In this document: piece by piece, positions 6,786 through 52,230 of the stretch
Layout of the letters: every line of letters begins with the position of its first letter
Numbering within the stretch: position 1 is the first letter of the stretch
Origin: Gammaproteobacteria bacterium
GTDB taxonomy: Bacteria; Pseudomonadota; Gammaproteobacteria; Pseudomonadales; Alcanivoracaceae
DNA length: 64,000 nucleotides
Direction of reading: 5' to 3'
NCBI GenBank assembly: GCA_018067045.1
Contig: JAGPVL010000015.1
Coordinates: 186,001-250,000, forward strand
Program-made: the position numbers and the translations under genes
The notes under the pieces: generated by a model
The model's database searches: none
The model's input: only the letters and a program-made list of their open reading frames with translations
Told to the model about the DNA's origin: nothing

Positions 6786-6887
6786 GATAGGCCTGTACAA
6801 GCGTTCTCCTTTGTATTGATTTCCGTTAGACTTCAGGGGCCTATAACAATAAATGAAAGGGCCCCAAGGGCTCTGACGGAGCAGGCG

Positions 6888-7478: not shown

Positions 7479-7498
7479 CGGTCGGGGTATTTGGAATA

Positions 7499-16567: not shown

Positions 16568-17617
16568 TTAAAGTAAATCCTCGATATTGAACGATGTCGT
16601 CGGCTCTGCAACGTCGTCCCAAAAGCTCCCGAGCGCGCCAAACGGTGTTCTCTCGCCGGTTGCTTCGGTCCACATTCGATCTGAAATGCTGCGTACAGTA
16701 AATTGCGTGATGGCGTTTAGCATGGCGTAGTCGCTGTCCAGCGTTTGGTCATCGTTTGCGAACTCACGGATGGCGCGGCGCAGCTCTTCTTTGTTGTCGG
16801 CGCTATACGCCGACACAGCATATAATGCGCTGCTTAATCGAACGCCTGATGCGTAACCTTGCTGCGCTGCTTCATGCAGAAGTTTCCATGTGTCGGTATC
16901 GGCAGGCGCCAGCATTGGCAGTATGCTCCATACAGAAGCTCTGATGCCGCCTGGGGCTCCCCACCATTTAGCGTTGTCTAAACAGCGCGAAGCGATTGCC
17001 GATTTGGCTGCGATATTTCTCGGTAATCCTAGCGAGTTGTCGGCCGCACCATCGTATAGAAGCGCTTGCACGCCGTTCAGATGGCCGACCAAAAACACCA
17101 TCTCATCAAAATCGCTACGCAGGCGAGGGCAATGTTCTTCAGTCGCTTCTCCGTACGCTGCAATTGCCCGTTGGTAGGATTCATAGAGACGAGCGCCAGC
17201 TATCGAGGAATAGCGCTTTTGTAAGGTTCGGGCATCACGCGCTTCGGCGGTCTGACCACTTTGAATGGCGCGGATATAGCGCAGCTCTTGCTCAAGTGCA
17301 CGTTGCTGGGCACATACTGCAGCCATGCTGTTCGTGAGTACGGCCAGACGAGTTGGATTGGCGTTGACGGATTCGAATGACACGAGAAAGGGTGTCATGG
17401 CTTCGCCGGTCGCGCAGGCCATGTCGAGATCGTCATAAGTTAGCAAGTACGGTGTCATTTCTGCACGGCCGTAGTTGACAAGAATATCTCCCGTCGTTTT
17501 GTACACAGGTGTACAGCCTTGCAGGACAAGCATTAATGGAATCAGTAGAGTAATGGTCAGCCTAAATAAGCGGCTGACGCTTTCCAGCATATGTGTATTT
17601 ATTTCAAAAAAACGCAT
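16568..17617 (-). CDS. Lipoprotein of unknown function
   Basis: 349 aa. The lipobox LVLQGC near residue 35 predicts a lipid-anchored protein. The start is set by AGGAG 7 nt upstream. The mature part is helical, with conserved-looking cysteines (MACATG, VCAQQ, EHCPRL, SRCLDN) and no catalytic motif I know. It may be a solenoid-type helical protein, since several helices have regular Ala/Leu spacing. It is the last gene of the seven-gene minus-strand cluster that includes a lipase and a FadL-type channel. A role in handling that system's substrate at the envelope is plausible but not shown. Confidence 0.72.
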   Translation of the reverse strand: MRFFEINTHMLESVSRLFRLTITLLIPLMLVLQGCTPVYKTTGDILVNYGRAEMTPYLLTYDDLDMACATGEAMTPFLVSFESVNANPTRLAVLTNSMAAVCAQQRALEQELRYIRAIQSGQTAEARDARTLQKRYSSIAGARLYESYQRAIAAYGEATEEHCPRLRSDFDEMVFLVGHLNGVQALLYDGAADNSLGLPRNIAAKSAIASRCLDNAKWWGAPGGIRASVWSILPMLAPADTDTWKLLHEAAQQGYASGVRLSSALYAVSAYSADNKEELRRAIREFANDDQTLDSDYAMLNAITQFTVRSISDRMWTEATGERTPFGALGSFWDDVAEPTTSFNIEDLL

Positions 17618-17655
17618 TCTTTAGCTCCTTGGAGTGAACCTCAAACATACAAGCA

Positions 17656-17680
17656 GCCCATATCGTTGATTGATATGGGC
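17656..17680 (-). other. Intercistronic hairpin
   Basis: A perfect 9-bp stem (GCCCATATC / GATATGGGC) with a 7-nt loop lies between two lipoprotein genes. There is no T run, so it is more likely an mRNA-stabilising or processing structure than a terminator. Confidence 0.5.
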
Positions 17681-17696
17681 CACCCACAATGCGTTG

Positions 17697-20600
17697 CTAA
17701 GGTTTTATTGGGTCAGAAATATAGTTAAGCACGGTAGCGCCGGCGGGAACGGTTAGATAAATCTTCTCGTTAGGAAATAATCCGGCGATATTAAGCAGCA
17801 CTTCGATGTTAAGTGCGTTCGAGCTAATCTCTTCTATGCGTTGGCGGCCGTCGTCGAGAAAGCCTAGTTCACCACTGAGTTGAAGATCGAGCTCTTTACT
17901 GTACAAGTCATGTGTTACGGGTACCGGTCCGCCTTGATCATTCACGACGTCCGGCGCGAGAGAGGGCGCGTCCAAATAAAGTGATAAGTTGGCGTGAAAT
18001 TGTGAGCGACCATTTTCTTCAACGATCCAGCCTTTTGCACGTCCAAAATCCGGCGCGCTACACTCTTCAGCGGCCGGGTTGCATGAATATTTCACGCGCA
18101 TTAACTGTGGCCCCGTTGGGGTTGGCCGTGCAATAAAGCACAAGCCAACACCTCCGCCACAGCCGGTGCTGACCGCCTCGGTCAGTTTGGTGTGTACGAC
18201 CGTTCCCGACAGAACAATTCTTGTGGGATAGATATACACAAGCACGCCGCCGTTTATACGCACTGTCTCAGGAATGCTTAGATCGCTTGGGTACTGCTGG
18301 TTAACGTCATCAGCGGACAGGAAGCCAACAATATCCGCGTTCAGGTTTCCGCTTGGGTGAATAAAGGTTTCGTCAGGACAGATTAATGGCTCGTCGCTTT
18401 CATTAAAGCCACAGCCGACGTTGGCATCTTTAACTGTTATGCCTGATCCAGCCGTGCCGTCTGCATCAGGATTTGCGCTCGGATTTCTGACAAGCTGGGC
18501 GCTATTGAGCACCGCTTGTGGGTGCGTAGACGGTTTAGTTTCACCATCATCAATTTTGAAATTTGTATTGAAGTCCGCGTTAGGTAAATTATGCAGCGTC
18601 AGTAGAACATTGGTAGTAGGGGTAGTCCCTCGGAAAAAAACAGACATGGATGGTCCGCCTGCTGTGGCGGCAGGAAAATTCGACGGGGTCTGACTGAGTA
18701 ATTGTGTTTGTACTGGGTAGCCACGGGTATCACATATTGCGTCGGTGCCGCAGTTAGGGGAAGAGAGCACGGATTTCACCGTATAGCGATATAGATCTCC
18801 TGCCAGCCAGGCTGAATGGGGTGTGAAGATGACGCTGCGAGACTCGTGTGTAATGGTGCCTTCTATGGGGGCTCCGATTGGCACTCCGTTTGCGTCGACG
18901 TGTTCGACGATAAAGGTATTGTTGTTGATGGAGCCGGCATCCATTGGTTGCGAAAATGTAACGTTAATGGCGCGATTCGCAGGAAGAGAGGGTAATGGCA
19001 AGTGGTCGTCACTTGGCTTTCCGCCAGAGCAGCGCCCAGAGTCGTTAGCAGAGAGGTTTGTATCAACGAGCACACAAGGAAACCCTGGGTACGCGGTTAA
19101 GACAATAGGGCTGCGTGGGTCGCTGCTGCTGTACTCGGGGATGTCCAACACACGGGTGGTTGGGTTAACGGCGTTGCCAGATAAGTCACGCACGTCATTG
19201 ACCACGCCTAACCAATAAAACTGTCCGTAGTCGAGTGGCGAGTTCGGTTGCACGACTAATGCCGCGCCGTGTTGGTGAAACTGAAATGGAATGTTGGCGC
19301 CACCGCTATCCGTTAGGGTGAAGTTGTCGCCGACTCGAATGGTTTCAGTGTCGAGCGGCTCACTCATCTGAACAATAATTGCCTCGTCAGGACGATATAA
19401 CCCTAAGTAGTCATCCGCCACCCAGCTATGCAGGTAAGGTGATTCAGCGTCTTCGGTGGGGGGCGGTGGATTCACCTGATCAAGGTGGCCGCGCATATTA
19501 AAGCTAAGAAGACTATTTGATTCTTCGACGCCCATGACGCTTGGTTGCGCCATACTAATTGCATTCACAACGAGGCGACCCTCGTTGACTATTGCGGTGC
19601 CGACTAGCTCAAGGTGTAAAAGATTTTGCGTGACCGCGCCGCTAGCGCGGGAATCTCCTGTCGAAATTGCAACATCCATATAAAGAATGATTTGACGTGG
19701 CGCATCGATGAGATCCGAGTAGGGGTTTTTGACCATGTATCCGATTGCGTCGGATATAAAACGTATTGATACGGGGCCTGAGTCGAAGCCCGTAGGAATA
19801 TGGCCGCCGATCTTCACATCCATTATCGAACCGTTCAGTAAAGAACCGCGTTTAATACGCAGTGGAGCGCTGTCAGGAAAGGTTGGGATGTGGGCAAGTT
19901 CAACGTTAAGTGAGCCAGTTTGCTGCGATTGATTATCTGGGCCGAGCAGAACCGCGGAGAGCGGTACTGTATTGATCGCTTCGCCCGTCAATTCGGAAGT
20001 AATACTGCCGTTGAGAGAGTCTTCTACTTCTTGAGCCAGCGTTGACCTGCTTCCGGAGCTTTTCGGAAAGAAGGTGATATTTGTTCCAGAAAAGCTCTCA
20101 CCGTAAACACTCTCAACACCTTGCTCTACGACTAGGTGGTATTCCGCCCCAGGGGTGAGATCTTCGACAGGGTCTAGCGTGAGGTAGGGGCCGCTAACCA
20201 GTACTTGCGCGTTAACCAGTCCGTTAGGACCTTGCAGGGACAGCGTATCGCCATATCGTAACGAGCTTCGATTTATGGGTTGGCTAAATTGAAGGCGGAA
20301 GCTGGTGAAGTCGAGAATGGGAAATTGTACGCCATCTGGAATAACGTGCCGTAATGCAAAATCCCCCGTGGCGGCAACTTGATCGCGAGGGCCTTCACTG
20401 AGCCCACGAGTCGAAAATATTAATTGCCGAGCACGACTGATGCCATCGGCTAGATTTATTTCGCCCAGATCGAGTGTGTATTCTGTGAGCGGTGCTAGCG
20501 GTAATTCGGGCGTTAATACGAGGCCGTGACCATTACCCACCTTTTTGATCGCGTAATCAATCTCCTCACCTTGATCGTTGCGTAGTGTGATGAGGTTTTG

Positions 20601-20816
20601 CGGAAAAGTATCCACGATCGCACTGCTAAAACGTAGCACCATAGGGGAGGGAGTCGGCACTTCATTTTGACGATCTCTTGGGTAGCTATACACGATCCCT
20701 TGATTGTTCGCTATTTTGAGCGTGCTTGGTGTGATCTCGCCTTTTTCGTCACCACAAGATACTAGTGTGGTCGCACAGGCGACAATTGCTACGAACTTTA
20801 TTATTGAATGAATCAT
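17697..20816 (-). CDS. Large lipoprotein with repeated SbsA-type Ig-like domains
   Basis: The start is ATG at 20816, with AGGAG 6 nt upstream. The TTG one codon earlier is not needed. The 1039-aa product has a signal peptide ending in the lipobox LVSC (about residue 21), so it is lipid-anchored. At least four Ig-like SbsA (Big_5) type segments are visible from their FSxPI/xxxSI and YTL signatures: near residues 45-135, 165-255, 470-560 and 625-710. A mid-region between the second and third forms an unassigned beta-rich domain. The C-terminal 250 residues have paired cysteines. It is probably an extracellular or outer-membrane surface protein working with the FadL-type channel encoded 23 bp upstream. 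No enzymatic motif was recognised. Confidence 0.78.
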   Translation of the reverse strand: MIHSIIKFVAIVACATTLVSCGDEKGEITPSTLKIANNQGIVYSYPRDRQNEVPTPSPMVLRFSSAIVDTFPQNLITLRNDQGEEIDYAIKKVGNGHGLVLTPELPLAPLTEYTLDLGEINLADGISRARQLIFSTRGLSEGPRDQVAATGDFALRHVIPDGVQFPILDFTSFRLQFSQPINRSSLRYGDTLSLQGPNGLVNAQVLVSGPYLTLDPVEDLTPGAEYHLVVEQGVESVYGESFSGTNITFFPKSSGSRSTLAQEVEDSLNGSITSELTGEAINTVPLSAVLLGPDNQSQQTGSLNVELAHIPTFPDSAPLRIKRGSLLNGSIMDVKIGGHIPTGFDSGPVSIRFISDAIGYMVKNPYSDLIDAPRQIILYMDVAISTGDSRASGAVTQNLLHLELVGTAIVNEGRLVVNAISMAQPSVMGVEESNSLLSFNMRGHLDQVNPPPPTEDAESPYLHSWVADDYLGLYRPDEAIIVQMSEPLDTETIRVGDNFTLTDSGGANIPFQFHQHGAALVVQPNSPLDYGQFYWLGVVNDVRDLSGNAVNPTTRVLDIPEYSSSDPRSPIVLTAYPGFPCVLVDTNLSANDSGRCSGGKPSDDHLPLPSLPANRAINVTFSQPMDAGSINNNTFIVEHVDANGVPIGAPIEGTITHESRSVIFTPHSAWLAGDLYRYTVKSVLSSPNCGTDAICDTRGYPVQTQLLSQTPSNFPAATAGGPSMSVFFRGTTPTTNVLLTLHNLPNADFNTNFKIDDGETKPSTHPQAVLNSAQLVRNPSANPDADGTAGSGITVKDANVGCGFNESDEPLICPDETFIHPSGNLNADIVGFLSADDVNQQYPSDLSIPETVRINGGVLVYIYPTRIVLSGTVVHTKLTEAVSTGCGGGVGLCFIARPTPTGPQLMRVKYSCNPAAEECSAPDFGRAKGWIVEENGRSQFHANLSLYLDAPSLAPDVVNDQGGPVPVTHDLYSKELDLQLSGELGFLDDGRQRIEEISSNALNIEVLLNIAGLFPNEKIYLTVPAGATVLNYISDPIKP

Positions 20817-20839
20817 CAAATTCTCCTCATCACGCTCAG

Positions 20840-22210
20840 TTAGAACTTCATCGTGAAGCTGCCCACAAACACGTGTACGTCGCCACTGGCGCGTACCGTT
20901 TCGTAAGGGGCGGGGCTGGAGGAGTTACTTAGGTCAAAGTCTCGCTCAGAAAGACTGTGGAATTGATATCCAAAGTCAAACTGCACGGGAGACGCCATAT
21001 ACAAATGATCAGGAAGTCGATGAGCGACGACACTAAAGCCGAGCCCGACAATAAGTTTATCTGTGTCAAGATAATTTACATCTGGGCTAGTGGTGTTTGT
21101 CATTGGGGACTCTTCCCATGCCGCGCCAGTCTTTAACGTAACGTTTTCAGTGAGGCTGTACTCCAATCCCAGTCTTGGGATAAAGATATCTTTAAAGTCG
21201 AGATTGCCTTGGTCTTGAATAGTGTCTTCTTTCAGTTTGTCAGTGAGTCGAGACCATTGTTGGTATTCTCCTGTTAGGCCGACCCCAACGTCGCCAAATT
21301 GATAGCGCACACCAAATGCGGTGATTGCTGGTTGAAAGGCATCGAAAGCAGTAATCGCGAGAATCAAACCAGGGCTTGTTACGGTTCCAGGGATTTCTGC
21401 TTCAGCATTTACTTCAACACGTGCATTCGAGTAAGCACGGTGTGATAGCGCAACGTCGAGATTGTCGAGCCAACAGCTTTGTGTTGAACAGAAAGTGTCG
21501 CCCGCATTCATGTTGAGACCAACAATCGGACGGAATACCGGTTTTGCCGAAACGTTTAGACGTTCATTACTGGTGTTACCTTGCAAGTCAGTCATCGTGT
21601 AGAGGTTTGCATCACTATGTAGCGTAATGCGCATCGAAGCGCCGATGTTGATGCCACGCCATAGCTTGGTCCCAAATCCTATAGACAGTAGTAGCGGTTC
21701 GCGGTCGTACTGCAAGAACTGCCCCCCTTCGGATGTTTCTGAGCTGAACGCTAGCATCTCTTGCGCGTACTTTTCGCTGCCGAGCATAAAGCCGAGATAC
21801 ATAGGGTGCTTAAGGGTGCTCAAGTCACTTAAATCGGTTTTCAATCCCAATAAAAGTTGCTGTGATGGCGAGTTATCAATGATGTCACTGCTGCGGTTGG
21901 CTGGGGCTGATCCGCCAAGGCTTTTTGCACGTAGTTCATGATCCGCATGAAATAAACCCGTAGTGAGTTCGCTATGTGAATCGTTCGCTAACGCTGCTGG
22001 ATTGTAATATACCGCTGACGTTTGCGAGTTAAAGAGCGACATGGCCTGCGCGGTAGATACATCGTGTGGAAGTATTCCGTAGGTTGATGGTGAATTTCCC
22101 ATGTTTGCCGATACGGATGTTGACATAGTCAACAATATTCCCATGTGCAGTAGTGAATAGGCTGATCTTGATGTTCTTTTCTGAGGCTCAAATCTTTTAG
22201 AAATCTTCAT
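20840..22210 (-). CDS. FadL/OmpP1/TodX-family outer membrane channel
   Basis: 456 aa with a long signal peptide ending after VSANM (about residue 36). The mature start (GNSPSTYGILPHDVSTAQAMSLFNSQTSAVYYNPAALA) is the FadL hatch region: the AxNP-type motif appears as YYNPAAL. The rest is amphipathic beta-strand ending in FVGSFTMKF, with a C-terminal aromatic residue as in outer membrane barrels. The family lets long-chain fatty acids and other hydrophobic compounds pass the outer membrane. Its place between the anchored repeat protein and the Ig-like lipoprotein, and in line with a lipase, suggests it imports the hydrolysis products. Confidence 0.82.
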   Translation of the reverse strand: MKISKRFEPQKRTSRSAYSLLHMGILLTMSTSVSANMGNSPSTYGILPHDVSTAQAMSLFNSQTSAVYYNPAALANDSHSELTTGLFHADHELRAKSLGGSAPANRSSDIIDNSPSQQLLLGLKTDLSDLSTLKHPMYLGFMLGSEKYAQEMLAFSSETSEGGQFLQYDREPLLLSIGFGTKLWRGINIGASMRITLHSDANLYTMTDLQGNTSNERLNVSAKPVFRPIVGLNMNAGDTFCSTQSCWLDNLDVALSHRAYSNARVEVNAEAEIPGTVTSPGLILAITAFDAFQPAITAFGVRYQFGDVGVGLTGEYQQWSRLTDKLKEDTIQDQGNLDFKDIFIPRLGLEYSLTENVTLKTGAAWEESPMTNTTSPDVNYLDTDKLIVGLGFSVVAHRLPDHLYMASPVQFDFGYQFHSLSERDFDLSNSSSPAPYETVRASGDVHVFVGSFTMKF

Positions 22211-22257
22211 TTTTATCGAATCCTTAAATTTTTTAGTTCAATTTTTCTACGGCCAAT

Positions 22258-25200
22258 TTAGCGACGGCGATAACGTGGCCCTAGTGGGCTACGACGCGTT
22301 GACAGGCGCAGCGCGAGCAATGAAGCCAGCAGGAACATGAAGGTGTTAAAGCTGCCGACGCCACCTGGTTCTTCGCCAACGGTATGAGCTGTTACGGGGT
22401 CATCGGTGGCAGTCGGCGGAACTGGATCGGAGCCAGTACCGTTTCCGGTTAGGATTACTTGAATGGCTAATGCTGCAGAAGATATCTGTAGCTCAGCGGA
22501 TTTCATGCCTGCGCTAGATGGCGAGAAACTGACGTGGATCGTGCAGGTTTCGGTTGGCTGCAAGGATCGGCAAAGATCGCTCTTGAACGGGAAATAGCTG
22601 CCGCGGTCCGTGCCGCTTACTGACGTAACGAGGGACAACGTTGTGGATCCAGTATTCTCTGCGACGAGTACGAGCTGTTTTGCGTTGCCGGGATCAACGT
22701 CGCCGAAGCTGAGTGCTTCTGTTGAGATCGTTAATCCCGGTTGCGGTTGGGCGAGTCCTGCTGCTATCAGCGGAATAGTGAGTGATGCAGTCTCTGGATC
22801 ATTAGAAGAAATGATGATTGCAGCATCAACGTCACCAATTACGGTGGGTGCGTAGATGAGGGCTAGCGTGCAGATCTGACTAGGCGAAAGGGCACCATTG
22901 CAGCTTTCTTCGAGGGTGAAATCAGTGCTATCAGTACCTTCGATGGCGACGCTGTTGATGATGAGGTTCGTTGAACCAGTATTTTCAATCGTGATGTCTC
23001 GTCGGCGTGTCTCGTTAACAACAACACCGCCAAATTCCGCAATAGATGCGGTAATGATAGGCAACGGCATTGGAGTACCGGCTCCATCTAGTGTGATGCT
23101 TAAGCTCGGTGTATCGGTATCGTTTGATGTCAGCGTCAGTGTTGCGGTATCGGTCGTCACGGTGCTCGGCGAGAAGGTGATATTAATGGTGCAAGTAGCG
23201 CTCGCGACGATCGTTCCGCAGTTGTTGGTTTGCGAGAAACTGGTGGCTCCCGCAATGTTGATGTTAGTCAGATCGAGATTTGCCGAGCCGGTGTTGGAGA
23301 CGGTAATGGCCTGATCTGAGTTGGTGCCTACTTGATGTGCGCCGAATGTTATTGCAGTGCTGCTTACGGCAATGTTTGGCGTCGGTAACGCTAAGCCTGA
23401 GCCAGATATTGGGATCACGACCGTTGGCGTTTCTGGATCATCGCTAGTGAGTGTTAAAGCCGCTGCCTTAAGGCCAATGCTGGTTGGGGAAAACGATACG
23501 GTGATAGCACACTCTTCGGCAGGGGATAGCTGTGAACAGTTATGGCTGACGGTAAAGCTCGTTGTATCGATGCCAGACACGGAAATATTGCTCACATTGA
23601 GATTTGCCGTACCGCTGTTGCTCGCGGTTATCGTGAGTGTTTCAGATTGGCCGACAGTCGTCGCCGCGAAAAGTAACGTCATGCTGTCGAGACTCAGATC
23701 AGGCATTGGCGCTGCGGTTGCATTTCCCGATAACGATACGCTCACTAGTATGTTGTCTAGGTCGTTGGAATTGATCGTCAGAGTTGCGTTACGTAGCCCT
23801 TGTGCGAGAGGCGCGAAGGTCACGGTAATAGCGCAATCTTCACTGGCTAGGATGTCAACGCAATCATGATCTATGGAATAATCCGCGGCGTTTGTGCCGA
23901 TAATAGCGACACTACTAAGCGTTAAGTCTCCTGAGCCGGTGTTGGCAATAATTGTGTTTAAGCTGGTTGTGCTGCCGATTTCAGTGTCATCAAAATTCAA
24001 TGCCAGTGGCGAGACAGATATCTCTGGATTTAATTCAATTAGGCCGCTTCCACTGAGAGAGATCGCCAATTCAGGCGCGTTTGGCGCATTCGAGGATAGG
24101 TGCAAGGTTGCCGCATGCGGTCCTTCTATTGTTGGCGAGAAACTAACGGTAATTGTGCAGCTATCACTCGGAGCGATAGCAGAACAATTTCCATCGTCCA
24201 TATGAAAGAAGCTTGAGCTGTTGATGCCTGATAGCGAAATGGCGGCGGACAAGGGTTGGCTGCCAATGTTGCTGATGATCAGTGTTTCGCTTGCCGTGTC
24301 ATTGATAGGCACCTCGCCAAACCCCATTACCTCAAGGCTTGTCGAGATGATTGGCTGTGGCGTTAGCTCCGCGAGTCCGTTCAGGGGAATATTAAATGAG
24401 GGGCTGTCTGGGTCATTGGAACTAATTGCGAGGGATGCGGATAGGTCGCCGCTTTCGTTCGGATTGAAGTTTGCGGTTAGTGTACAAATGCTGAAAACGG
24501 CGACGGTTGAACAGTCATGACTTTGTGAAAATGCCGCGGCATTATCTCCGGAAATAGTGACGTCGCTTATCGTTAGCGGAGCGTCTCCTATATTCGCGAC
24601 GGTTACAATAATTTGCTTTGATTCGCCAACGAGGGTGGCAGCGAAAGTCAGTGTATTTGGCGCCACAGCAATGTTGGGTTGGGGCTGACTGGTTCCGCTC
24701 GCTGAGAGTGAGATTATGGTGGTTGGGTTACTGACGGAATTTGACGCTATGTGAATTGCTGCCGACTTGCTCCCTTCGGAGTTGGGTGAAAATGTAATGG
24801 ATAGGGAACAGCTTTCAGAAGACGCTACGAAGGAGCAATCATGTGTTTGAGCAAATTCACTCGCATCAGCCCCGACGAGTGAAATAGAGCTAATGTTGAG
24901 TTCTGCTGTGCCACTGTTTGTAATGGTTGCTATGCGATTGGCGTTGCTTCCTATCTGAACAGTGCTGAAGTCGATTGACGCCGTAGAGAGGGTGATTTCT
25001 GGCGCCGGTATTAATGTGGCTTGACCGGTTAACGCTACTTTCAGCGTCGGACTATCTGGATCATTTGATTGCACGGTTAGGCTTGCTGCACGCGAGCCGT
25101 TCCCAGACGGTATGAACGTTACCACTATCGTGCAGCTGGAGCTGGGCGCGACAGATGAGCAGTTATGGCTTTGTGAAAATTCAGCCGCATTTGTTCCATC

Positions 25201-26643
25201 GATAAAAATATTATTGATCGCTAAAGGCGCTGTACCGATGTTGGAAACGGTTGCGCTTAGATTAGTGGTATTTCCGGTCGGTAACTCGCCGAACGATAAA
25301 GCAGTAGGAGAGATCACTATTTCTGGTTGCGGGGCAAAGACGCCTTCGCCCATTAACAATACTTGTGAAGAGGGAGTGTCAGCGTCATTTGAGAGAATAG
25401 TTAGCGTCGCCGAACGTAGGCCTTCTCCGGAAGGCGTAAAGCTAATAGTGATGGTACATTGCGAATCTGCATCGACGATCGTGCAATCATTAGTCTGAAA
25501 AAACTCACTACTGTCGGCGCCAGTTATAGTAATCATTCCGTTGATAAGCAGTGTGGCTGTACCGGTATTATTGATCGTAACGATCATGTTTTCGGTGACG
25601 CCGGCTTGGACTTCGGCAAAGTTTACTTGGCTTGTGCTTAGGCTGATATGAGGCTCGGGAGCGAAGACACCTTGCCCAGACAGTCCTACGGTTACGGTGG
25701 GGGTGTCAGCATCGTTTGATAAGATGCTGAGTACAGCAGTTCGTGATCCCTCACCAGAAGGTGAGAATGAAACCGTTACGGTGCAAGTCTGCGCGGCGGC
25801 GACCGTTGAGCAGTCGTTTGATTGAAAGTATTCGCTCGCATCAGCGCCACTGATATTAATACTGTTGATAACGAGGCTTGCATTGCCTTGGTTGGATATT
25901 GTTACTGCAATATCGTCGGTCGTGCCGGCCTGTGTGTCGCCAAACGTTACCGCGTTTGGGTTAACTGAAATTTCTGGGGTAGGGTCTGGTTCCGCAGGTG
26001 TGATGGTAAAACGATGCAGAATGTTGTTCTGCCCAGCATCAAGTGTGCAAGGAGCCGGAAATATTCCTGTACTTGGGTCTGATTCCGCAAAAATAACTGG
26101 GCTGCCGTCTGCTTTGAGTGCCAGTAAGGCTAGATTGATGTTGCCCACGGAGATCGCCAGTTCGCCAATATTCAATGCACTAAAGGTTAATGGCGGTGTT
26201 TGTCCAGCGGCAATCAAGTCGAAGTCTCCGTTCACTGCGGGAACGTCCTGCCGAGCAATGGTTAATGGAACGTCTAAATCGAGTGAAAGATTATTCCCCG
26301 ATATATTGGACGATGAGTTTGCCGTTCCTCCTAGTGAAGTTGCGCTGACAATGTTGAGGCCCATCCATGTATTGCCTTTCGCTGTCGCAATTGCTTCGAG
26401 ATTGAACGCGCCGGTAGACTGACCAACCGGTAAACTATCTGGCATGTCGGAGTTGACGATAACAGACATCGGCTGCACGCCAATAAGCGGGTAAGTGCAG
26501 TGATAGTTGAGCTCGATGGAAACCGGATTGGCATGAGCTAGCGTGGATGCTAATAGGAATAATGTGATCGCTGAAAGGCTTAATGTGATGTCGTAAAATT
26601 GTGATGCTAGTGACGTGAGTCGTTTTCCAGTAGATGTCTTCAT
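22258..26643 (-). CDS. Giant DUF6801-like protein with eleven choice-of-anchor-D repeats and C-terminal anchor
   Basis: ATG at 26643 is chosen because GGAGAG lies 7 nt upstream. Starts at 26685 and 26664 have no such site. The 1461-aa product has a signal peptide (cleavage after AHA), then a DUF6801-like domain of about 175 aa (LNYHCTYPLIG to TLDAGQNNILH). Eleven tandem repeats of about 105 aa follow, of the ASPM/SPD-2/Hydin (choice-of-anchor D) type. Most have FGxxxxG, SNxG, a Cys pair and a conserved SNDPDSP-like turn. The last 35 residues have Gly-Gly, a hydrophobic stretch and an Arg-rich end, like a GlyGly-CTERM sorting tail. It is probably a long, rigid surface fibre. No catalytic site was seen. 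The tail may be cut by a rhombosortase, but that gene is not in the window. Confidence 0.8.
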   Translation of the reverse strand: MKTSTGKRLTSLASQFYDITLSLSAITLFLLASTLAHANPVSIELNYHCTYPLIGVQPMSVIVNSDMPDSLPVGQSTGAFNLEAIATAKGNTWMGLNIVSATSLGGTANSSSNISGNNLSLDLDVPLTIARQDVPAVNGDFDLIAAGQTPPLTFSALNIGELAISVGNINLALLALKADGSPVIFAESDPSTGIFPAPCTLDAGQNNILHRFTITPAEPDPTPEISVNPNAVTFGDTQAGTTDDIAVTISNQGNASLVINSINISGADASEYFQSNDCSTVAAAQTCTVTVSFSPSGEGSRTAVLSILSNDADTPTVTVGLSGQGVFAPEPHISLSTSQVNFAEVQAGVTENMIVTINNTGTATLLINGMITITGADSSEFFQTNDCTIVDADSQCTITISFTPSGEGLRSATLTILSNDADTPSSQVLLMGEGVFAPQPEIVISPTALSFGELPTGNTTNLSATVSNIGTAPLAINNIFIDGTNAAEFSQSHNCSSVAPSSSCTIVVTFIPSGNGSRAASLTVQSNDPDSPTLKVALTGQATLIPAPEITLSTASIDFSTVQIGSNANRIATITNSGTAELNISSISLVGADASEFAQTHDCSFVASSESCSLSITFSPNSEGSKSAAIHIASNSVSNPTTIISLSASGTSQPQPNIAVAPNTLTFAATLVGESKQIIVTVANIGDAPLTISDVTISGDNAAAFSQSHDCSTVAVFSICTLTANFNPNESGDLSASLAISSNDPDSPSFNIPLNGLAELTPQPIISTSLEVMGFGEVPINDTASETLIISNIGSQPLSAAISLSGINSSSFFHMDDGNCSAIAPSDSCTITVSFSPTIEGPHAATLHLSSNAPNAPELAISLSGSGLIELNPEISVSPLALNFDDTEIGSTTSLNTIIANTGSGDLTLSSVAIIGTNAADYSIDHDCVDILASEDCAITVTFAPLAQGLRNATLTINSNDLDNILVSVSLSGNATAAPMPDLSLDSMTLLFAATTVGQSETLTITASNSGTANLNVSNISVSGIDTTSFTVSHNCSQLSPAEECAITVSFSPTSIGLKAAALTLTSDDPETPTVVIPISGSGLALPTPNIAVSSTAITFGAHQVGTNSDQAITVSNTGSANLDLTNINIAGATSFSQTNNCGTIVASATCTINITFSPSTVTTDTATLTLTSNDTDTPSLSITLDGAGTPMPLPIITASIAEFGGVVVNETRRRDITIENTGSTNLIINSVAIEGTDSTDFTLEESCNGALSPSQICTLALIYAPTVIGDVDAAIIISSNDPETASLTIPLIAAGLAQPQPGLTISTEALSFGDVDPGNAKQLVLVAENTGSTTLSLVTSVSGTDRGSYFPFKSDLCRSLQPTETCTIHVSFSPSSAGMKSAELQISSAALAIQVILTGNGTGSDPVPPTATDDPVTAHTVGEEPGGVGSFNTFMFLLASLLALRLSTRRSPLGPRYRRR

Positions 26644-26727
26644 GACGATGCTCTCCGGGCGCATGAATCCATATTGACGGGACACGATGCGGCATTATTA
26701 TTTTTCTAGTTTGAGAACCTTTTAAAA

Positions 26728-26772
26728 CGCGGCCTGAAATACAGATATACGGCATTAACAATTCAGGCTGCG
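26728..26772 (-). other. Imperfect inverted repeat between lipase and giant repeat protein genes
   Basis: 11-bp arms (CGCGGCCTGAA / TTCAGGCTGCG, one mismatch) with a 23-nt loop, followed on the minus strand by TTTT. It may be a weak terminator or mRNA processing element. Confidence 0.4.
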
Positions 26773-26791
26773 TTCTATTACATGAACTTTT

Positions 26792-28033
26792 TCATTCCAC
26801 ACAGTTGGATGACGCCGGTATTCCGCTAAATCGATTTTCTAGGAAATCAATGACGTCAGCGTTTCCGTGGTAAACGAGATTAATGTGGCGAATAACGCCG
26901 TTCTCACCGTCAGTGTCATATTCCTTCCATGTATGCGTCGCTCCTTGCGAGCAGTAAGTGGTGCGCAGATCTTTTGCCTGCCCGAATGCAACTAATCCGT
27001 CTTGTATCTCGTGATACTGAAAAATGGGGGACGTGATTTCGGTCTTGCCGAGCTCGTTTTCAGCAATGCGATTAAATCGATCGAGGTTAAGAGGGTTGAT
27101 GTCGGTTAGATCAGAAAGTTTTTTCCCAGAGAAGCCTTGTATTAGCTCGATGACGCACATGTCATTCTCCATGCTGCTCACCGCAGCGCGGCCCGCGTCG
27201 CTGAGATAGGGAGAGAGTGATAATCCCGGGTAGGCATAGTCTTGCCCGAGTAGCGCGTAAAAGAGAACGCCAAAGCCGGGCTGGCCTTCTAGGGGGAGAG
27301 CTACCTGAGCTAAGTTAGCGGGTACGCCACCTGCAGCAGTGCCAACAACGGTCATTTCAGGCGCATAGGTTGGTTGCATCTGTGCCGCCCAAAGGGATGC
27401 TGCGCCACCTTGGGAGTAACCGCGAAATGCGACCTGGTATTCGCTGACGTTCGCATTGAAGTGGTGCGCGGTAGCGCGAGCAATATCAATTGCGGCGGCG
27501 CCCATCGAGCGGCCAACAATGTAGGTCGATTGCGGGTTCTGGTGATAACCCTCGTAATCGGGTATCGCAATAATATAGCCGCGCGACAGCATGTCGTTGA
27601 TTGCGGATTGCTCATAGTAGGCGCCGTTATCAATCATTCTTGATGGTGTGCAGCGAAATGCGGGGCCAGCAGTGCCTGGGGCCATAACGACAATGTTTCG
27701 TAGTGTTGAGGTTGAGCCTTTTGGGATAATAATGGAGCCCGTCGTTAGATTTGGATTTCCCAGTGCATTTGCGGAGTGATACATCACTCTGAATGCGTCT
27801 GCTGCTTTGTTCGCGGAGGGAGGGCCGGCGCGCATTGGCTCTTCACGAAAAATTTCGCCCGGAATTCCAGCGGGGAGTGATGTCGGTAAGGTATAGAAAG
27901 TGAGAACGTCTTCTGTTTCGGTAGCGGCGATCTGCAAAGAAAGAGGCAATAACGTTATTAGTGATAACGTGGCAAGGGCGCCTTTAAGCGTGTAGATACG
28001 CCGCTTCGCGACGAGTACGGTATTGATGTCCAT
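26792..28033 (-). CDS. Secretory lipase (LIP family, alpha/beta hydrolase)
   Basis: 413 aa with an N-terminal hydrophobic segment (about residues 17-36) as signal peptide. The family's secretory-lipase layout is clear: a GIPGEIFREEPM start, APGTAGPAFRC, IPDYEGYHQNPQSTY, and the nucleophile elbow GYSQGG with Ser207. The C-terminal Asp and His of the triad are probably in the HGNADVIDF region, but I cannot fix both. Four cysteines could form disulfides. Lipases of this family hydrolyse triacylglycerols and other esters. The start codon overlaps the stop of the upstream DUF6801-like gene (TAATG), so the two are co-translated. Polyester or sterol-ester hydrolysis is an equal possibility. Confidence 0.87.
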   Translation of the reverse strand: MDINTVLVAKRRIYTLKGALATLSLITLLPLSLQIAATETEDVLTFYTLPTSLPAGIPGEIFREEPMRAGPPSANKAADAFRVMYHSANALGNPNLTTGSIIIPKGSTSTLRNIVVMAPGTAGPAFRCTPSRMIDNGAYYEQSAINDMLSRGYIIAIPDYEGYHQNPQSTYIVGRSMGAAAIDIARATAHHFNANVSEYQVAFRGYSQGGAASLWAAQMQPTYAPEMTVVGTAAGGVPANLAQVALPLEGQPGFGVLFYALLGQDYAYPGLSLSPYLSDAGRAAVSSMENDMCVIELIQGFSGKKLSDLTDINPLNLDRFNRIAENELGKTEITSPIFQYHEIQDGLVAFGQAKDLRTTYCSQGATHTWKEYDTDGENGVIRHINLVYHGNADVIDFLENRFSGIPASSNCVE

Positions 28034-29172
28034 TACATTTCTCTCTTGGCGTCAGTGGCTGGTGTCAGCGATAACTCGATGGTGTTGTCTGAGCCGGACA
28101 TCATTAGATTGACGAAGCCATTGATACCACCGCACTGACCAAATGACGGTAGCGTGTATCTTCCTTCTACCGTGCCGCCTTGCATTGGATCAAATGCTTG
28201 GCCATTGATGGTTTCGAGTTTTAAATGGACAGGCGTTTGAGTTTGACAAGATGGCGTTTCACTTGAAGAGATAGTGAAACCGAATAGTTTAATGGTGATG
28301 TTTGGCAGCGAGACGTGCATGTCGGTATTCACGGTGAGCACGTTGTTTTCGATAGCCGCAGTGCTTGTTTCACTAAACGAAAACGATACGTCGGATGAGC
28401 CCGTAACTGTGCCGAATAGGCGGCTGCTCTTCAGTTTTGCGTGAGCGGGGTTTATTGATATTTCCGCGCTGTCTTGTTCTTGATCTATCTTCAGCATGCC
28501 GCTGACATCAAAGGTGCTTTTGGCAGTGGGGATCGACATAGATCCGGCCATCTGTAGCGTGAGGTCTTCTGGGGCTTCGTCAACGACATGAATGGTCGTG
28601 AGAGTGTTGTTTTGATTTGGCGACAATGTGCACAACGATTCGAAGGTGCCAACACCTGTTTTTCTATCGTTATGATCTTGTGGCGATATTCGCATCACGA
28701 TGCTGTTCACCGTAATAGGCGCGTCTCCTATTGAGGAGAACGCAATAGGCGGAGTTGCGCCTATTGCGTTGACAGAAAACTCGCTTCGCTCATTGGGGAA
28801 AGGAGTTCTCTCAATATTCATGGGTACATCTAAATCGAGGGTGTTGCCTTGCGGCAACGTCAGCGTGGCGTTGGCAGATGCGGTGCCGTATAAGCTTCTA
28901 GCACCGAGAAAGTAGAGCCCATTCCATGCCTCTTCTGTGACGGTTGCTTCAGCGCTGATAATGAATTCATCGGTAAGTGTATTGATGACAACGGATTCTG
29001 GAATGTCGGCATCAATGTGCACGGACATAGGTTGATCTTTAAGAAGTGGGAAGACACAGCTGTATTGAAGTGATAGCTGGGCCGGTGCCGCGGAAGCCGG
29101 TGCGGCGAGAACAATCATCGCGCCTAATACTGCGACGATTTTTCCGAAAGTTAAATTATTTTTATTGTTCAT
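28033..29172 (-). CDS. DUF6801-like secreted protein without choice-of-anchor-D repeats
   Basis: ATG at 29172 (GGGG about 4 nt upstream) gives a 379-aa product. The longer frame from 29229 would add 19 residues ahead of the signal peptide. The signal peptide ends after PASAA. The N-terminal half (LQYSCVFPLLKDQPMSV) matches the DUF6801-like domain of its two larger neighbours. The C-terminal half (about residues 220-375) matches the end of the 609-aa neighbour, with the shared blocks INPAHAKLK, LFGFTI, QAFDPMQGGTVEGRYTLP, QCGG and NTIELSLTP. It therefore consists of the two end domains fused directly, without repeats between. It is secreted, and its role is unknown. Confidence 0.72.
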   Translation of the reverse strand: MNNKNNLTFGKIVAVLGAMIVLAAPASAAPAQLSLQYSCVFPLLKDQPMSVHIDADIPESVVINTLTDEFIISAEATVTEEAWNGLYFLGARSLYGTASANATLTLPQGNTLDLDVPMNIERTPFPNERSEFSVNAIGATPPIAFSSIGDAPITVNSIVMRISPQDHNDRKTGVGTFESLCTLSPNQNNTLTTIHVVDEAPEDLTLQMAGSMSIPTAKSTFDVSGMLKIDQEQDSAEISINPAHAKLKSSRLFGTVTGSSDVSFSFSETSTAAIENNVLTVNTDMHVSLPNITIKLFGFTISSSETPSCQTQTPVHLKLETINGQAFDPMQGGTVEGRYTLPSFGQCGGINGFVNLMMSGSDNTIELSLTPATDAKREM

Positions 29173-29193
29173 GTACCCCAATCCCTGACAGGT

Positions 29194-29217
29194 GTGCCCC
29201 CTGATTTCAGGGGGCAC
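29194..29217 (-). other. Perfect hairpin upstream of the DUF6801-like gene
   Basis: An 11-bp stem (GTGCCCCCTGA / TCAGGGGGCAC) with a 2-nt loop lies 21 nt before the ATG. A second, imperfect hairpin lies at about 29246-29272. Neither has a T tract. They probably separate or stabilise cistrons. Confidence 0.55.
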
Positions 29218-29287
29218 TAAAATGACCATTTATAGCGTTGTGATATAGCAGGCGCCTCTGCTCGAAGCGGAGACGCCTTGTGCTGTA

Positions 29288-31117
29288 TCAGAGCTTTGGG
29301 GTCAGGTTCAGGGTTATGGTGTTGCCAGGGCCTGCCATCAAAGAGTTGATGATGCTGTCGAAACCGCCGCAATCAGCTACAGGTGGCAAGGTATAAGTGC
29401 CTTGCAGCGTGCCGCCAGTTTGCAGTGGATCGAATGGCTGATCATCAGGAGACGCTAGGTCCATCGTTGCAGGTTCAATCGTCTTACACTCTGCGCCGCC
29501 ACCGACGCGGAATTTAAGACCGAACAAGTTAACTGAAACTTTCGATAGCTTGACGTACATCTCTGAGTGAGAAGTCAGCTTGCCAGCGTTGTTTAGCGTG
29601 CCGGTGGTTTGGCCAACTTGTTGGAACTCAATATCAGCAATGGTAGTGATCGACTTTAACCAGCTCAGCAGTTTGAACTCACCGTGAGTAGGATTAAGGG
29701 CTAGATCAGCAGTGTAAGTTTGTGATGCGAGATCGAGATCCGCATCAATGGTGCCGCCGATGTTGATGGTGCCTTTCGCTGCTTTGATGTACGAACTGCC
29801 TTCTAGGTCATAGACAACCAATACGCCAGTGCCGGTATCTTCAAAGCCCTGACCAGAGACAGGAACTTGTACGGATGGGCTATCTGGATCATCGGATGTA
29901 ATGGTTAGGTTTGCACTGCGAGCACCTTGTCCGTTAGGCGTAAAGGACAGGGCAACCGAGCAATCGCCGCCAATACCAACGGTTGAACAAGTGTTGGTTT
30001 GCATGAACTCGCTAGCATTGGTGCCGCCGAGTGCAATGCCGGTGATGGTTAAGGCTGCTGTACCGTCGTTGCTGATAGTAACGGTACGATTCGCAGAAGT
30101 GCCGACAGTAACCTGGCCGAAGCTAACTGATGCTGGATCAGTCGTGATGTTCGGATTGGTTTCCATTTCACTTGTGCCGGTTAATGGCACAGAAACGGTT
30201 GGTTCGTCTTCATCTGTTGAGGCGATACTTAGCTCGGCGCTGTGGGTTGCGTCGCCGTTTGCGAAGTAGGTGACGTCAACTTGACAGCTTGCACCGTCGG
30301 CTACAGTGGAGCAGTTGTTTGTCTGCGAGAACTGCGCTGCGTCTGCGCCGTTTAAGACAATATCGTTAATGCCGAGCGGGGCTCCGCCGATATTGGACAC
30401 GGTAACGGTTTCTGTAGCGGTTAAGCCGGCTTGAACGTTGCCGAAGTCAACAGAGGATGGCGTTACGTTAATGTCGGCTGGTGCATTGGCGCTAACGACT
30501 TCAAACGTGTGCAAAACATTGTTTTGCCCTGCGACCATGGTACAGATTGATGGAAAGACACCTGTATTCGGGTCGGATTCAGCGAAAAAGACAGGGCTGT
30601 TATCCGCTTTGCGTGCTAACAGTGCCATGTCCAAATTGGAGACGGTAATAATAATGTCGCCGACGTTATTTTCGGTGAAGGTTAGTGGGGGAGTCTGGCC
30701 AGTTGCAATCAAATCAAAATCGCCGGCTTGCGGCGGAATGGGTTGGTTTGCAATATTAGTCGGAACCTGTAGGTCGAGCGAAAGATTGTTGCCACTAATA
30801 TTTGAAAATGCGGTGGCTGTACCTTCGATCGAGGTGGCGCTAACAATGTTAAGGCCGCCCCAGGTATTTCCCTTTGCGGTAGCAACAACATCAAGATCAA
30901 ACGCACCGGTGGACTGCCCGACAGGAATGGTTTCAGGCATATCCGAGTTGATAACGATTGAAAGAGGCTGCGTGCCGATAAGCGGGTAGGTACAGGTATA
31001 GTCTAGATTGAGTGATACCGGAACGGCTGATGCGAGACCGCTCGCGGTGAGTAGAGTGCCCCCGGCAATGGCTAACCGAAGTCGGTTAAGCCCGTTGTTT
31101 GAATTGATAGACAACAT
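29288..31117 (-). CDS. DUF6801-like secreted protein with two choice-of-anchor-D repeats
   Basis: 609 aa, the first gene of the cluster, with a signal peptide ending after LASAV. Domain order: DUF6801-like (about 32-210, very close to the same region of the giant protein, sharing the stretches INSDMP, VGQSTGAF, NISGNNLSLDL and ESDPNTG); two choice-of-anchor-D repeats (about 215-320 and 325-430), each with a Cys pair; and a C-terminal domain (about 445-608) shared with the 379-aa neighbour. The shared end region has QPFDPLQTGGTLQGTYTLP. The start follows GGAGAAAGG. No anchor tail is present, so it is presumably secreted or held by a partner. Confidence 0.78.
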   Translation of the reverse strand: MLSINSNNGLNRLRLAIAGGTLLTASGLASAVPVSLNLDYTCTYPLIGTQPLSIVINSDMPETIPVGQSTGAFDLDVVATAKGNTWGGLNIVSATSIEGTATAFSNISGNNLSLDLQVPTNIANQPIPPQAGDFDLIATGQTPPLTFTENNVGDIIITVSNLDMALLARKADNSPVFFAESDPNTGVFPSICTMVAGQNNVLHTFEVVSANAPADINVTPSSVDFGNVQAGLTATETVTVSNIGGAPLGINDIVLNGADAAQFSQTNNCSTVADGASCQVDVTYFANGDATHSAELSIASTDEDEPTVSVPLTGTSEMETNPNITTDPASVSFGQVTVGTSANRTVTISNDGTAALTITGIALGGTNASEFMQTNTCSTVGIGGDCSVALSFTPNGQGARSANLTITSDDPDSPSVQVPVSGQGFEDTGTGVLVVYDLEGSSYIKAAKGTINIGGTIDADLDLASQTYTADLALNPTHGEFKLLSWLKSITTIADIEFQQVGQTTGTLNNAGKLTSHSEMYVKLSKVSVNLFGLKFRVGGGAECKTIEPATMDLASPDDQPFDPLQTGGTLQGTYTLPPVADCGGFDSIINSLMAGPGNTITLNLTPKL

Positions 31118-31698: not shown

Positions 31699-32430
31699 AT
31701 GAATAGATCGGTTGTGTTGTATTCTGTTGTATTTCTTTGTGCATTATCGGCATTTTCCGTTGTGCTAATGCCTGCGGGTGCGTTGAGAAATCTGGTCGTG
31801 CCACGGGATGCTTCTGAGCCGGCTCTCCAGCGAATGCGTGTTTCTGGGCTTTGGTGGAAGGGGCGAGCAGATACGGTATGGCAAGATCAGCAGTTGTCAT
31901 TGGGCTGGGAAATGGATTGGCGGGGCTTTAGGCCGGGCTTGCTGCTCTCGTCTGCGGCCGGATTGGTAGAGGTGAATGGCTGGATTGGAGTGAAGGCCGG
32001 TAATGTGAATATGGAAGGCGTCAGTGCCGTACTGCCAGTCGGCGCCATTTCGAAGTTTCTGCCTTTGGGTCACGCAGATGGTGTGATTAGTGTAAGTGAC
32101 TTCGCCATCACTTTGGCCGATAAAGCTATTTTGAATATAAGCGGGGCGGTTAGCTATAGCGGTGGTAGCGCTGATTTTGGCTTTGGTGATTCAGTCGTTG
32201 TGCCTCCCATAGTGGGTTTGTTTAGCATGTCAGAAGACGCTCCGCAGCTTGATATTCAGAGTTCTGAAGAGGTTAAGCTTGCACGTATTTTTATGGAAAA
32301 AGATATGGTTGTGCTGCAGGTGCTTCGAGCATTTCCGCAGCTTCTAGGGATGAGCGATATCGACGGTGGGGCTGGTGATGAGGTTTATCGTGTTAGTCAG
32401 CCGTTAGATCTTTCTGCCTTGGCAGACTAG
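31699..32430 (+). CDS. GspN-like protein (type II secretion system protein N family)
   Basis: 243 aa with one N-terminal membrane helix (about residues 6-28). The body shows GspN-like features: PAGALRNLV after the helix and the GLWWKGRADTVWQDQQLSLGWEMD segment, which resembles the family's GTLWxGxA...LxW pattern. The start is set by AGGTG 5 nt upstream. GspN is an accessory inner-membrane protein of some type II secretion systems. No other gsp gene is in the window, so it is an orphan copy. It lies divergent from the secreted lipase cluster, which suggests a link to export of those proteins. Assignment is moderate because GspN is weakly conserved. Confidence 0.6.
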   Translation: MNRSVVLYSVVFLCALSAFSVVLMPAGALRNLVVPRDASEPALQRMRVSGLWWKGRADTVWQDQQLSLGWEMDWRGFRPGLLLSSAAGLVEVNGWIGVKAGNVNMEGVSAVLPVGAISKFLPLGHADGVISVSDFAITLADKAILNISGAVSYSGGSADFGFGDSVVVPPIVGLFSMSEDAPQLDIQSSEEVKLARIFMEKDMVVLQVLRAFPQLLGMSDIDGGAGDEVYRVSQPLDLSALAD

Positions 32431-34252: not shown

Positions 34253-34960
34253 TTAAACGCTATGGAGCTTTATGTCGGAAAAAGAGTTAACGCTGGGGTG
34301 TGGGGCGTGGGGAGATGGCCGGGCAGTTGATGACGAGGGAGAGTGCTGGCGATCAAGTAGTGTGGTTTGCATGCCGGCGCTTTTTGCTGCGTCCAGCTCT
34401 TCCTTAATGTCAGAAAGAAATAGAATTTCGTCTTCAGGAAAGCCAATGTTATGGGCAATTCGACGGTAGGACTCTTCTTCACGTTTGCCACCGAAGGTGG
34501 TGTCGAAATAATCAGAGAATAGCGGCGTTAGATCGCCAGCTTCGCTGTAGCGGAAGAATAGCTTTTGAGCGGCGATTGAACCAGATGAGTAAACATAAAG
34601 GATTAAACCTTGTTCGCGCCATGTTGCTAATTGATGGGCGACGTCTGGGTACATGTGGGCGCGATAGCTGCCGTCTTCATATCCTGCTTTCCAGATCATG
34701 CCTTGCAGCGCTTTGAGTGCGGTTGCTTTTTTGTCGGCTGTGATCCAGCGTTGCAGAATGTCGTTTGCCTGTTCTGGTGTGCCTACGTTGGTCCCGGATT
34801 CCGCTGAAATGGCGGTAATCTGTTTGGCGACGTTATCGTTTGCCCAGTTCTTTTGCAGAAATGACAGCATTTCTTTCGCCGCATAAGGGAATAACACCTC
34901 TTTAACAAAGGAGATGCTGCTGGTGGTCCCTTCGATGTCTGTCAGTACCGCACGAATCAT
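34253..34960 (-). CDS. mtnC: Enolase-phosphatase E1, methionine salvage
   Basis: 235 aa HAD-family enzyme. The N-terminal DIEGTTSSISFVKEVLFPYA holds the catalytic Asp, and the later YSSGS and FLSDIKEELDAA blocks are typical. It converts 2,3-diketo-5-methylthiopentyl-1-phosphate to the acireductone by enolisation and dephosphorylation. The usual C-terminal end (HPSVNSFSDI) is preserved, but a short Pro/Ser-rich insert of about 14 residues precedes it. The start overlaps the stop of mtnD by one base (TAATG). It is the last gene of the mtnA-B-D-C series. Confidence 0.95.
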   Translation of the reverse strand: MIRAVLTDIEGTTSSISFVKEVLFPYAAKEMLSFLQKNWANDNVAKQITAISAESGTNVGTPEQANDILQRWITADKKATALKALQGMIWKAGYEDGSYRAHMYPDVAHQLATWREQGLILYVYSSGSIAAQKLFFRYSEAGDLTPLFSDYFDTTFGGKREEESYRRIAHNIGFPEDEILFLSDIKEELDAAKSAGMQTTLLDRQHSPSSSTARPSPHAPHPSVNSFSDIKLHSV

Positions 34961-36143: not shown

Positions 36144-36223
36144 GGCTTTCTCTGTTGTCACGTTACGCCCTGTTGGATATTCGCTGCGCATTGGTCTTAG
36201 GTTGTTAAATGCCAACGCTATAT

Positions 36224-52210: not shown

Positions 52211-52230
52211 AACGCAGACGCGCACAACGA

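What the first reader, a model, noticed from the sequence alone, without database searches (positions are those of the whole stretch)
16568..31117. Seven-gene surface lipase/FadL system with DUF6801-like proteins
All seven genes read the same way and all products are exported: three DUF6801-like proteins, a secretory lipase coupled by TAATG to one of them, a FadL-type channel, and two lipoproteins. A GspN-like and an AraC gene flank them. Together they could capture, hydrolyse and import a lipid, sterol ester or polyester at the cell surface. I know of no described system with this gene set.
Basis: partly seen in the sequence, partly recalled or inferred. Interest (0 to 1): 0.75.

Follow-up and report, generated by a model that had tools for sequence, protein, structure and literature searches.

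The report
Cell-surface lipase and uptake gene cluster
An oil-degrading marine bacterium carries a gene cluster that probably cuts fats or other esters at the cell surface and takes up the products; its core, an enzyme plus an uncharacterised partner protein, recurs side by side in two very distant groups of bacteria, which suggests what that unknown partner family may do.

Summary
In detail: seven same-strand genes, each with an export signal readable by eye; the lipase start overlaps the preceding stop (TAATG). The seven are a mosaic.

(1) The FadL protein and 1040-aa lipoprotein are a divergent AupA-AupB pair, a described alkane-uptake system.

(2) The core, DUF6801-DUF6801-lipase, is conserved: a PF03583 lipase lies beside DUF6801 in 11 of 11 DUF6801-bearing genomes of its family and at least 10 of 16 in an actinomycete order. 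These lipases form one clade across both phyla (100/100). The C-terminal domain of DUF6801 proteins is also fused to a second lipase lineage (13 of 13 extracted; hhalign E 5e-14). DUF6801 proteins therefore probably work with lipases; two library searches found no paper naming the family.

(3) AraC and GspN-like neighbours belong to the module: GspN-like lies inside it in 10 of 10 module genomes examined; 7 genomes without the module have at most one GspN-type match.

Best reading: a regulated, probably type II-exported surface lipase/esterase with partner proteins, joined in 4 of 11 genomes to an Aup pair. Substrate, export route and cooperation are inferred. Marinobacter keeps AraC-DUF6801 without lipase (35 loci), so DUF6801 has wider uses.

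The parts
29288..31117 (-). DUF6801a: signal peptide, DUF6801 domain (39-202), two choice-of-anchor-D Ig domains, C-terminal beta domain (about 431-609)
   Evidence: Pfam PF20611 67 bits, NF012200; AlphaFold2 model pLDDT 87.9, pTM 0.42
28033..29229 (-). DUF6801b: DUF6801 domain plus the same C-terminal domain without Ig repeats; likely start 29172
   Evidence: Pfam PF20611 72 bits; aligned by profile
26792..28033 (-). secreted lipase, PF03583, CAL-A fold; putative triad S207-D345-H383
   Evidence: PF03583 145 bits; PDB matches 9jcb 1.7e-19, 2veo 1.9e-18 with S, D, H aligned; residue numbers and conservation in 7 of 7 module lipases
22258..26685 (-). long DUF6801 protein with 11 choice-of-anchor-D repeats and a C-terminal Gly / hydrophobic / Arg tail; likely start 26643
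   Evidence: tail read directly; GlyGly-CTERM model does not match this protein but matches the A. hongdengensis counterpart in one of two searches
20840..22210 (-). AupA-type FadL outer-membrane channel
   Evidence: NF041571 506 bits, below the 840-bit cut-off; tree of 30 AupA rows
17697..20819 (-). AupB-type lipoprotein, TTG then ATG start at 20816, lipobox LVSC
   Evidence: 37% identity over residues 38-1039 to the AupB of Marinobacter nauticus DSM 50418, which lies 11 nt after its aupA
16568..17617 (-). 349-aa lipoprotein, lipobox LQGC, no known family
   Evidence: tblastn finds it only in the window genome and G001 among loci held
31699..32430 (+). GspN-like (T2SSN) protein, module-specific copy
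   Evidence: PF01203 29.9 bits against cut-off 29.6; inside the module in 10 of 10 module genomes examined
32553..33581 (-). AraC-family regulator with PF12625 sensor domain
   Evidence: AraC within 3 kb of DUF6801a in 48 of 53 gammaproteobacterial loci

Best explanation
An AraC-regulated surface lipolysis module. The CAL-A-type lipase is exported together with DUF6801 proteins; the C-terminal beta-barrel-like domain of the DUF6801 proteins acts as a detached accessory domain that helps the lipase meet a hydrophobic ester at the cell surface, and the repeat-rich DUF6801 protein holds the assembly at the surface. Export is most likely by the type II system with a module-specific GspN. In the window's genus and in A. 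limicola and its relative G022, an adjacent AupAB-type pair then takes up hydrophobic products (fatty acid, alcohol or hydrocarbon-like). Shown here: gene order, families, conservation, co-inheritance, domain fusion. Inferred: physical cooperation of DUF6801 with the lipase, export route, surface location, uptake of the products, substrate.
For: Lipase beside DUF6801 in 11 of 11 DUF6801-bearing genomes of 75 relatives and in at least 10 of 16 in the order of Actinomadura sp. OS1-43, 9 of the 10 on the same strand with DUF6801 upstream. One clade of 22 lipases (100/100) holds the 21 labelled DUF6801-adjacent rows plus one that proved to lie 0.7 kb from DUF6801 too. Fusion of the DUF6801-protein C-terminal domain to a second lipase lineage, 13 of 13 long lipases extracted, hhalign score 91.3 against at most 22.5 in 20 column shuffles and 12-22 against other domains. 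Catalytic Ser/Asp/His aligned to solved CAL-A-type lipases. GspN-like copy inside the module in 10 of 10 module genomes examined; the 8 of 53 gammaproteobacterial loci with the lipase are the same 8 with GspN. GspN serves type II export of surface lipoproteins (PMC12802150). The own genome has gspN-gspC-gspD elsewhere and a rhombosortase match of 148 bits against cut-off 84. In-cluster AupA from two genera lie in one 5-row clade (100/99) with one further copy.
Against: aupAB is beside the module in only 4 of 11 genomes. In Marinobacter the aup mutants were unaffected on hexadecanol, palmitic acid, a wax ester and tripalmitin, so the studied paralogue does not import such products. GspN in the paper serves lipoproteins, not soluble lipases (LipA and CpaA were independent), whereas the lipase and DUF6801 proteins are not lipoproteins. 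Marinobacter has AraC-DUF6801 with no lipase in the locus in 35 of 35 loci, so DUF6801 is not only a lipase partner. GlyGly-CTERM is not matched in the window's own long protein. Three Actinokineospora lipases outside the clade also lie 4-5 kb from DUF6801.
Confidence: 0.5

Rival explanations
1. Two independent units lie side by side: a lipase/DUF6801 cassette and a hitchhiking aupAB alkane-uptake pair. Aup imports alkanes as in Marinobacter and has nothing to do with the lipase.
For: Most module genomes lack aupAB beside the cassette (7 of 11), Alcanivoracaceae carry several aupAB elsewhere (5 AupA matches in G000), and Marinobacter aup mutants are affected on alkanes only.
Against: Order and strand are the same in two genera and the in-cluster AupA proteins group in one clade (100/99) with one other copy; gaps of 47 and 20 nt suggest co-transcription.
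Confidence: 0.35
2. DUF6801 proteins are adhesins or biofilm matrix proteins that bind cells to oil-water interfaces; the lipase is a separate secreted enzyme under the same regulator.
For: Ig-like repeats like those of surface proteins including VesB; AraC-DUF6801 without lipase in 35 of 35 Marinobacter loci, there followed in 34 by a DUF6160/FilA-like protein that NCBIfam calls a putative pilus system protein.
Against: Cross-phylum DUF6801-lipase adjacency including Gram-positive actinomycetes and the lipase fusion tie at least one domain to the enzyme.
Confidence: 0.3
3. DUF6801 proteins are periplasmic folding helpers of the lipase, comparable in role to the Lif foldases of Pseudomonas lipases.
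For: Upstream, translationally coupled position (TAATG) and conserved order in two phyla.
Against: Found without lipase in Marinobacter; in tandem arrays of up to 10 matches per genome in actinomycetes; secreted-protein architecture with up to 11 Ig repeats.
Confidence: 0.12

Closest known systems
AupA-AupB alkane uptake pair (Marinobacter hydrocarbonoclasticus SP17, PMC5989066)
   Same: FadL-type protein followed at 20 nt by a large AupB relative; same order as in M. nauticus, where the gap is 11 nt
   Different: AupA scores 506 bits, below the curated 840; belongs to a divergent clade; linked to a lipase module; all 27 AupB rows carry a lipobox cysteine, a word not found in that paper
CAL-A-type lipases (PF03583; PDB 2VEO, 3GUU, 9JCB)
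   Same: fold family by sequence, catalytic Ser, Asp, His aligned
   Different: own clade tied to DUF6801; four cysteines shared at like spacing in seven module lipases
GspN of type II secretion (PMC12802150)
   Same: PF01203 match
   Different: extra copy outside the gsp genes, in a lipase module; its substrate would have to be found
VesB-type GlyGly-CTERM surface proteins of Vibrio (PMC6219818, listing only)
   Same: choice-of-anchor-D Ig domain aligns with VesB 4LK4, Z 12.1 over 99 residues; rhombosortase present
   Different: not a protease; the window's tail is not matched by the GlyGly-CTERM model
AraC-DUF6801-DUF6160 loci of Marinobacter
   Same: orthologous AraC and DUF6801a
   Different: no lipase, no GspN, third gene is DUF6160/FilA-like

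Membership tests
AupA (NF041571) | score over the curated cut-off of 840 bits | tested here: not met
   506 bits; no genome of 75 relatives reaches it
AupA-AupB operon | aupA directly followed by aupB on the same strand | tested here: met
   20-nt gap; AupB homology 37% to M. nauticus
AupA-AupB operon | needed for uptake of alkanes | not testable with these tools
   needs mutants
PF03583 secretory lipase / CAL-A type | family profile over cut-off and catalytic triad | tested here: met
   145 bits, cut-off 23; triad aligned. That these residues are the CAL-A triad is recalled
DUF6801 (PF20611) | profile over cut-off of 26 bits | tested here: met
   72.2, 71.9, 67.0 bits
GspN (PF01203) | profile over cut-off of 29.6 bits | tested here: met
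   29.9 bits, only just; orthologues 37 to 54 bits
GspN (PF01203) | encoded with the type II genes | tested here: not met
   the copy beside gspC and gspD is another gene at G000:C6
GlyGly-CTERM protein | TIGR03501 match at the C terminus of 22258-26685 | tested here: not met
   no match (nor for the isolated tail); A. hongdengensis counterpart 11.5 bits, 16.4, cut-off 15.5
type II secretion substrate | secretion lost in a gspD mutant | not testable with these tools
   needs mutants
T2SS/GspN surface lipoprotein (for AupB) | Gly/Ser/Asp/Asn-rich stretch after the lipobox cysteine | tested here: inconclusive
   by script 19 of 27 AupB rows have 4 or more of 7; the window's own has 3 of 7; one row mis-picked by the script; no background set tested
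streptavidin-like or other lipid-binding barrel (C-terminal domain) | fold match | tested here: inconclusive
   1JMX chain A 178-282, Z 10.7, 104 residues, 2.6 A; that this is a streptavidin-like barrel is recalled

The most novel reading that the evidence does not exclude
DUF6801 proteins are a previously unrecognised class of lipase partner: a lipid- or interface-binding protein whose C-terminal barrel is either a separate polypeptide encoded just upstream of a CAL-A-type lipase (Actinomycetota and Alcanivoracaceae) or fused to the lipase. In Alcanivoracaceae the cassette has been wired to its own GspN and, in some lineages, to an Aup uptake pair, giving a lipid-utilisation locus comparable in logic to polysaccharide-utilisation loci: bind, cut and import encoded together.
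Probability: 0.35. Interest if true: 0.75.

Novelty: new variant of a known kind. Interest (0 to 1): 0.6.

Why it matters
It gives a testable role to an uncharacterised protein family (DUF6801) by two independent lines, cross-phylum gene order and domain fusion. If right, hydrocarbon-degrading marine bacteria hold a dedicated bind-cut-import locus for hydrophobic esters, relevant to what they eat when there is no oil, and the lipase clade with its partner may be useful for lipid or polyester work. It also ties a stray GspN copy to a defined set of candidate cargo proteins, soon after GspN received its first role.

Tried and rejected
Seven-gene unit conserved as such: rejected; only the core is.

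DUF6801 as strictly a lipase partner: rejected by Marinobacter, 0 of 35 loci with the lipase.

N- and C-terminal domains of DUF6801a as an internal duplication: no sequence similarity (hhalign probability 0.3).

AraC operator by shared words upstream of DUF6801a in eight Alcanivoracaceae: some AT-rich shared 12-mers, nothing convincing, no background model.

Promoters and terminators: promoter-like sites 13 against 21.8 expected, terminator-like 21 against 19.2, no information.

GC content of the cluster 0.503 against 0.511 and 0.52 on the sides: no sign of recent import.

Fold of DUF6801 and of AupB: models are confident (pLDDT 87.9 and 87.0), but PDB matches are mostly to Ig-like parts; no sequence relative in the PDB for the DUF6801 domain or AupB, and only a chance-level match (E 0.23) for the C-terminal domain. 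A missing fold match shows nothing.

Held-out check on five plasmid-record lipases of 78 records: none has DUF6801 within 6 kb and none belongs to the high-scoring class (182-281 bits). This agrees with the clade rule but is small. Of the 28 non-clade lipases in the tree, 13 were known to have no DUF6801 neighbour (8 Alcanivoracaceae; 5 of G434), 3 (Actinokineospora) lie 4-5 kb from one, and the rest were not examined. The actinomycete lipases in the tree are a choice of mine. Not all DUF6801 places of the 16 genomes were fetched, so 10 of 16 is a lower bound. G006 was not in the GspN search; in G031 and G035 the module GspN is the only one found, so it is an extra copy in 8 of the 10. G022 was represented by G025 in the lipase tree.

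Literature: searches for DUF6801 and PF20611 gave 0 papers; choice-of-anchor with Alcanivorax 0; others. Only open-licence PMC papers are held, so absence there is not absence from print.
Full report
Observation. Seven ORFs on the minus strand between 16568 and 31117 are confirmed with gaps of -1 to 106 nt and TAATG between DUF6801b and the lipase. Families: three DUF6801 proteins, a PF03583 lipase, a FadL-type protein, two lipoproteins. Export signals were read by eye.

Organism. The window is thus from an Alcanivoracaceae genus with one other genome in the set.

The uptake half is known. The FadL protein matches AupA (506 bits, cut-off 840). The 1040-aa lipoprotein matches the AupB of Marinobacter nauticus DSM 50418 at 37% over residues 38-1039; there aupA and aupB lie 11 nt apart, the spacing given for SP17 (PMC5989066, passages). 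A tree of 30 AupA rows puts the four in-cluster copies in a clade of five, 100/99, the fifth being another G022 copy. AupA matches occur in 47 of 75 relatives, none over the cut-off.

The lipase half is a conserved cassette. DUF6801 is held by 11 of 75 relatives, and in each of the 11 a PF03583 lipase is the neighbour. In the order of Actinomadura sp. OS1-43, 16 of 150 genomes hold DUF6801; in the stretches fetched, 10 of the 16 have a lipase of the same kind (499-540 bits) next to it, 9 on the same strand downstream of DUF6801. Kibdelosporangium banguiense has one lipase match in 12.8 Mb, and it is the convergent neighbour of DUF6801. A tree of 50 lipases puts all 21 labelled DUF6801-adjacent ones, from both phyla, in one clade with one more (100/100), and that one proved to be 0.7 kb from DUF6801. 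Against a perfect rule: three Actinokineospora lipases outside the clade lie 4-5 kb from DUF6801.

A fusion links the partners. The second lipase of the window's genome (G000:C33) and 12 other long lipases carry about 190 further residues that are homologous to the C-terminal domain of DUF6801 proteins: hhalign probability 98.2, E 5.4e-14, score 91.3; 20 column-shuffled controls score 9.8-22.5, other domains 12-22. Pfam has no model there. An AraC gene precedes this lipase too.

The flanks belong. AraC lies within 3 kb of DUF6801a in 48 of 53 gammaproteobacterial loci. The same 8 of these 53 loci that hold the lipase hold GspN. In a search of 17 genomes, the 10 with the module have a PF01203 match inside it; the 7 others (5 Alcanivoracaceae, 2 Marinobacter) have at most one match each; 8 of the 10 have a second match elsewhere, which in the window's genome lies beside gspC and gspD. 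GspN was shown in A. baumannii to serve type II export of surface lipoproteins, not of soluble substrates such as LipA (PMC12802150; abstract, passages, section 10 part 1, section 11). In most module loci the proteins encoded are not lipoproteins, so the cargo of this GspN is open.

Surface anchoring. The long DUF6801 protein ends in a Gly-containing, hydrophobic and Arg-rich tail. The GlyGly-CTERM model misses it; the A. hongdengensis counterpart scores 11.5 bits in one search and 16.4 in another, cut-off 15.5. A rhombosortase match over the cut-off is in the genome (148 bits), as in 33 of 43 genomes searched.

Structure. DUF6801a is modelled at pLDDT 87.9 (pTM 0.42); its Ig domains resemble those of CEP192 and VesB, and its C-terminal domain aligns with residues 178-282 of 1JMX chain A, Z 10.7. 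AupB is modelled at pLDDT 87.0, pTM 0.84, with CopC-like and other Ig-like parts, and long-stranded sheets not assigned. All 27 AupB rows have a lipobox cysteine followed by Gly, Ser or Ala (26 by script, one corrected by eye); the following residues are often Gly, Ser, Asp or Asn, which resembles, but does not prove, the sorting motif of GspN-dependent lipoproteins. AupB was reported mainly in the inner membrane, so this is a conflict worth testing.

The lipase. It aligns with CAL-A-type lipases with Ser, Asp and His in place; S207, D345, H383 and four cysteines are shared by seven module lipases. Its substrate cannot be told.

Mechanism. Most likely: an AraC-type sensor turns on secreted lipase and DUF6801 proteins; these meet an ester at the surface; products go in through AupA where present or through other channels. 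The link of Aup to ester products is the weakest step, since Marinobacter aup mutants grew normally on fatty acid, fatty alcohol, wax ester and triglyceride.

Novelty. Lipase, Aup and GspN are known families; the DUF6801-lipase cassette, its cross-phylum spread and the fusion were not found in the library. I rate it a new variant of a known kind.

Noticed in passing
L204:3056-4861 (G000:C33): A second PF03583 lipase of the same genome is fused to the DUF6801-protein C-terminal domain and lies next to another AraC gene.
   Followed up: yes
L090, L093-L097, L099-L122, L126, L127, L131, L132, L134: Marinobacter loci: AraC-DUF6801a in 35 of 35, followed in 34 by a DUF6160/FilA-like protein, without lipase.
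   Followed up: partly
A3 alignment (27 AupB proteins): All AupB proteins examined carry a lipobox cysteine with Gly/Ser/Asp-rich residues after it, although AupB was reported as mainly inner-membrane.
   Followed up: partly
L245, L249, L252: Actinomycete genomes carry clustered DUF6801 genes, up to 10 matches in one genome.
   Followed up: no
window 34253-37270: Four genes with HAD, ARD, class II aldolase and IF-2B domains, which look like a methionine salvage set (role recalled).
   Followed up: no
window 5166-9097 and 10713-13019: Two GMC oxidoreductases and an MMPL protein with sterol-sensing-domain similarity upstream of the cluster.
   Followed up: no
window 13-3896: Two proteins with multihaem cytochrome c-type matches.
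   Followed up: no
window 46877-52294: 1805-aa protein with OmpA and DUF11 domains.
   Followed up: no
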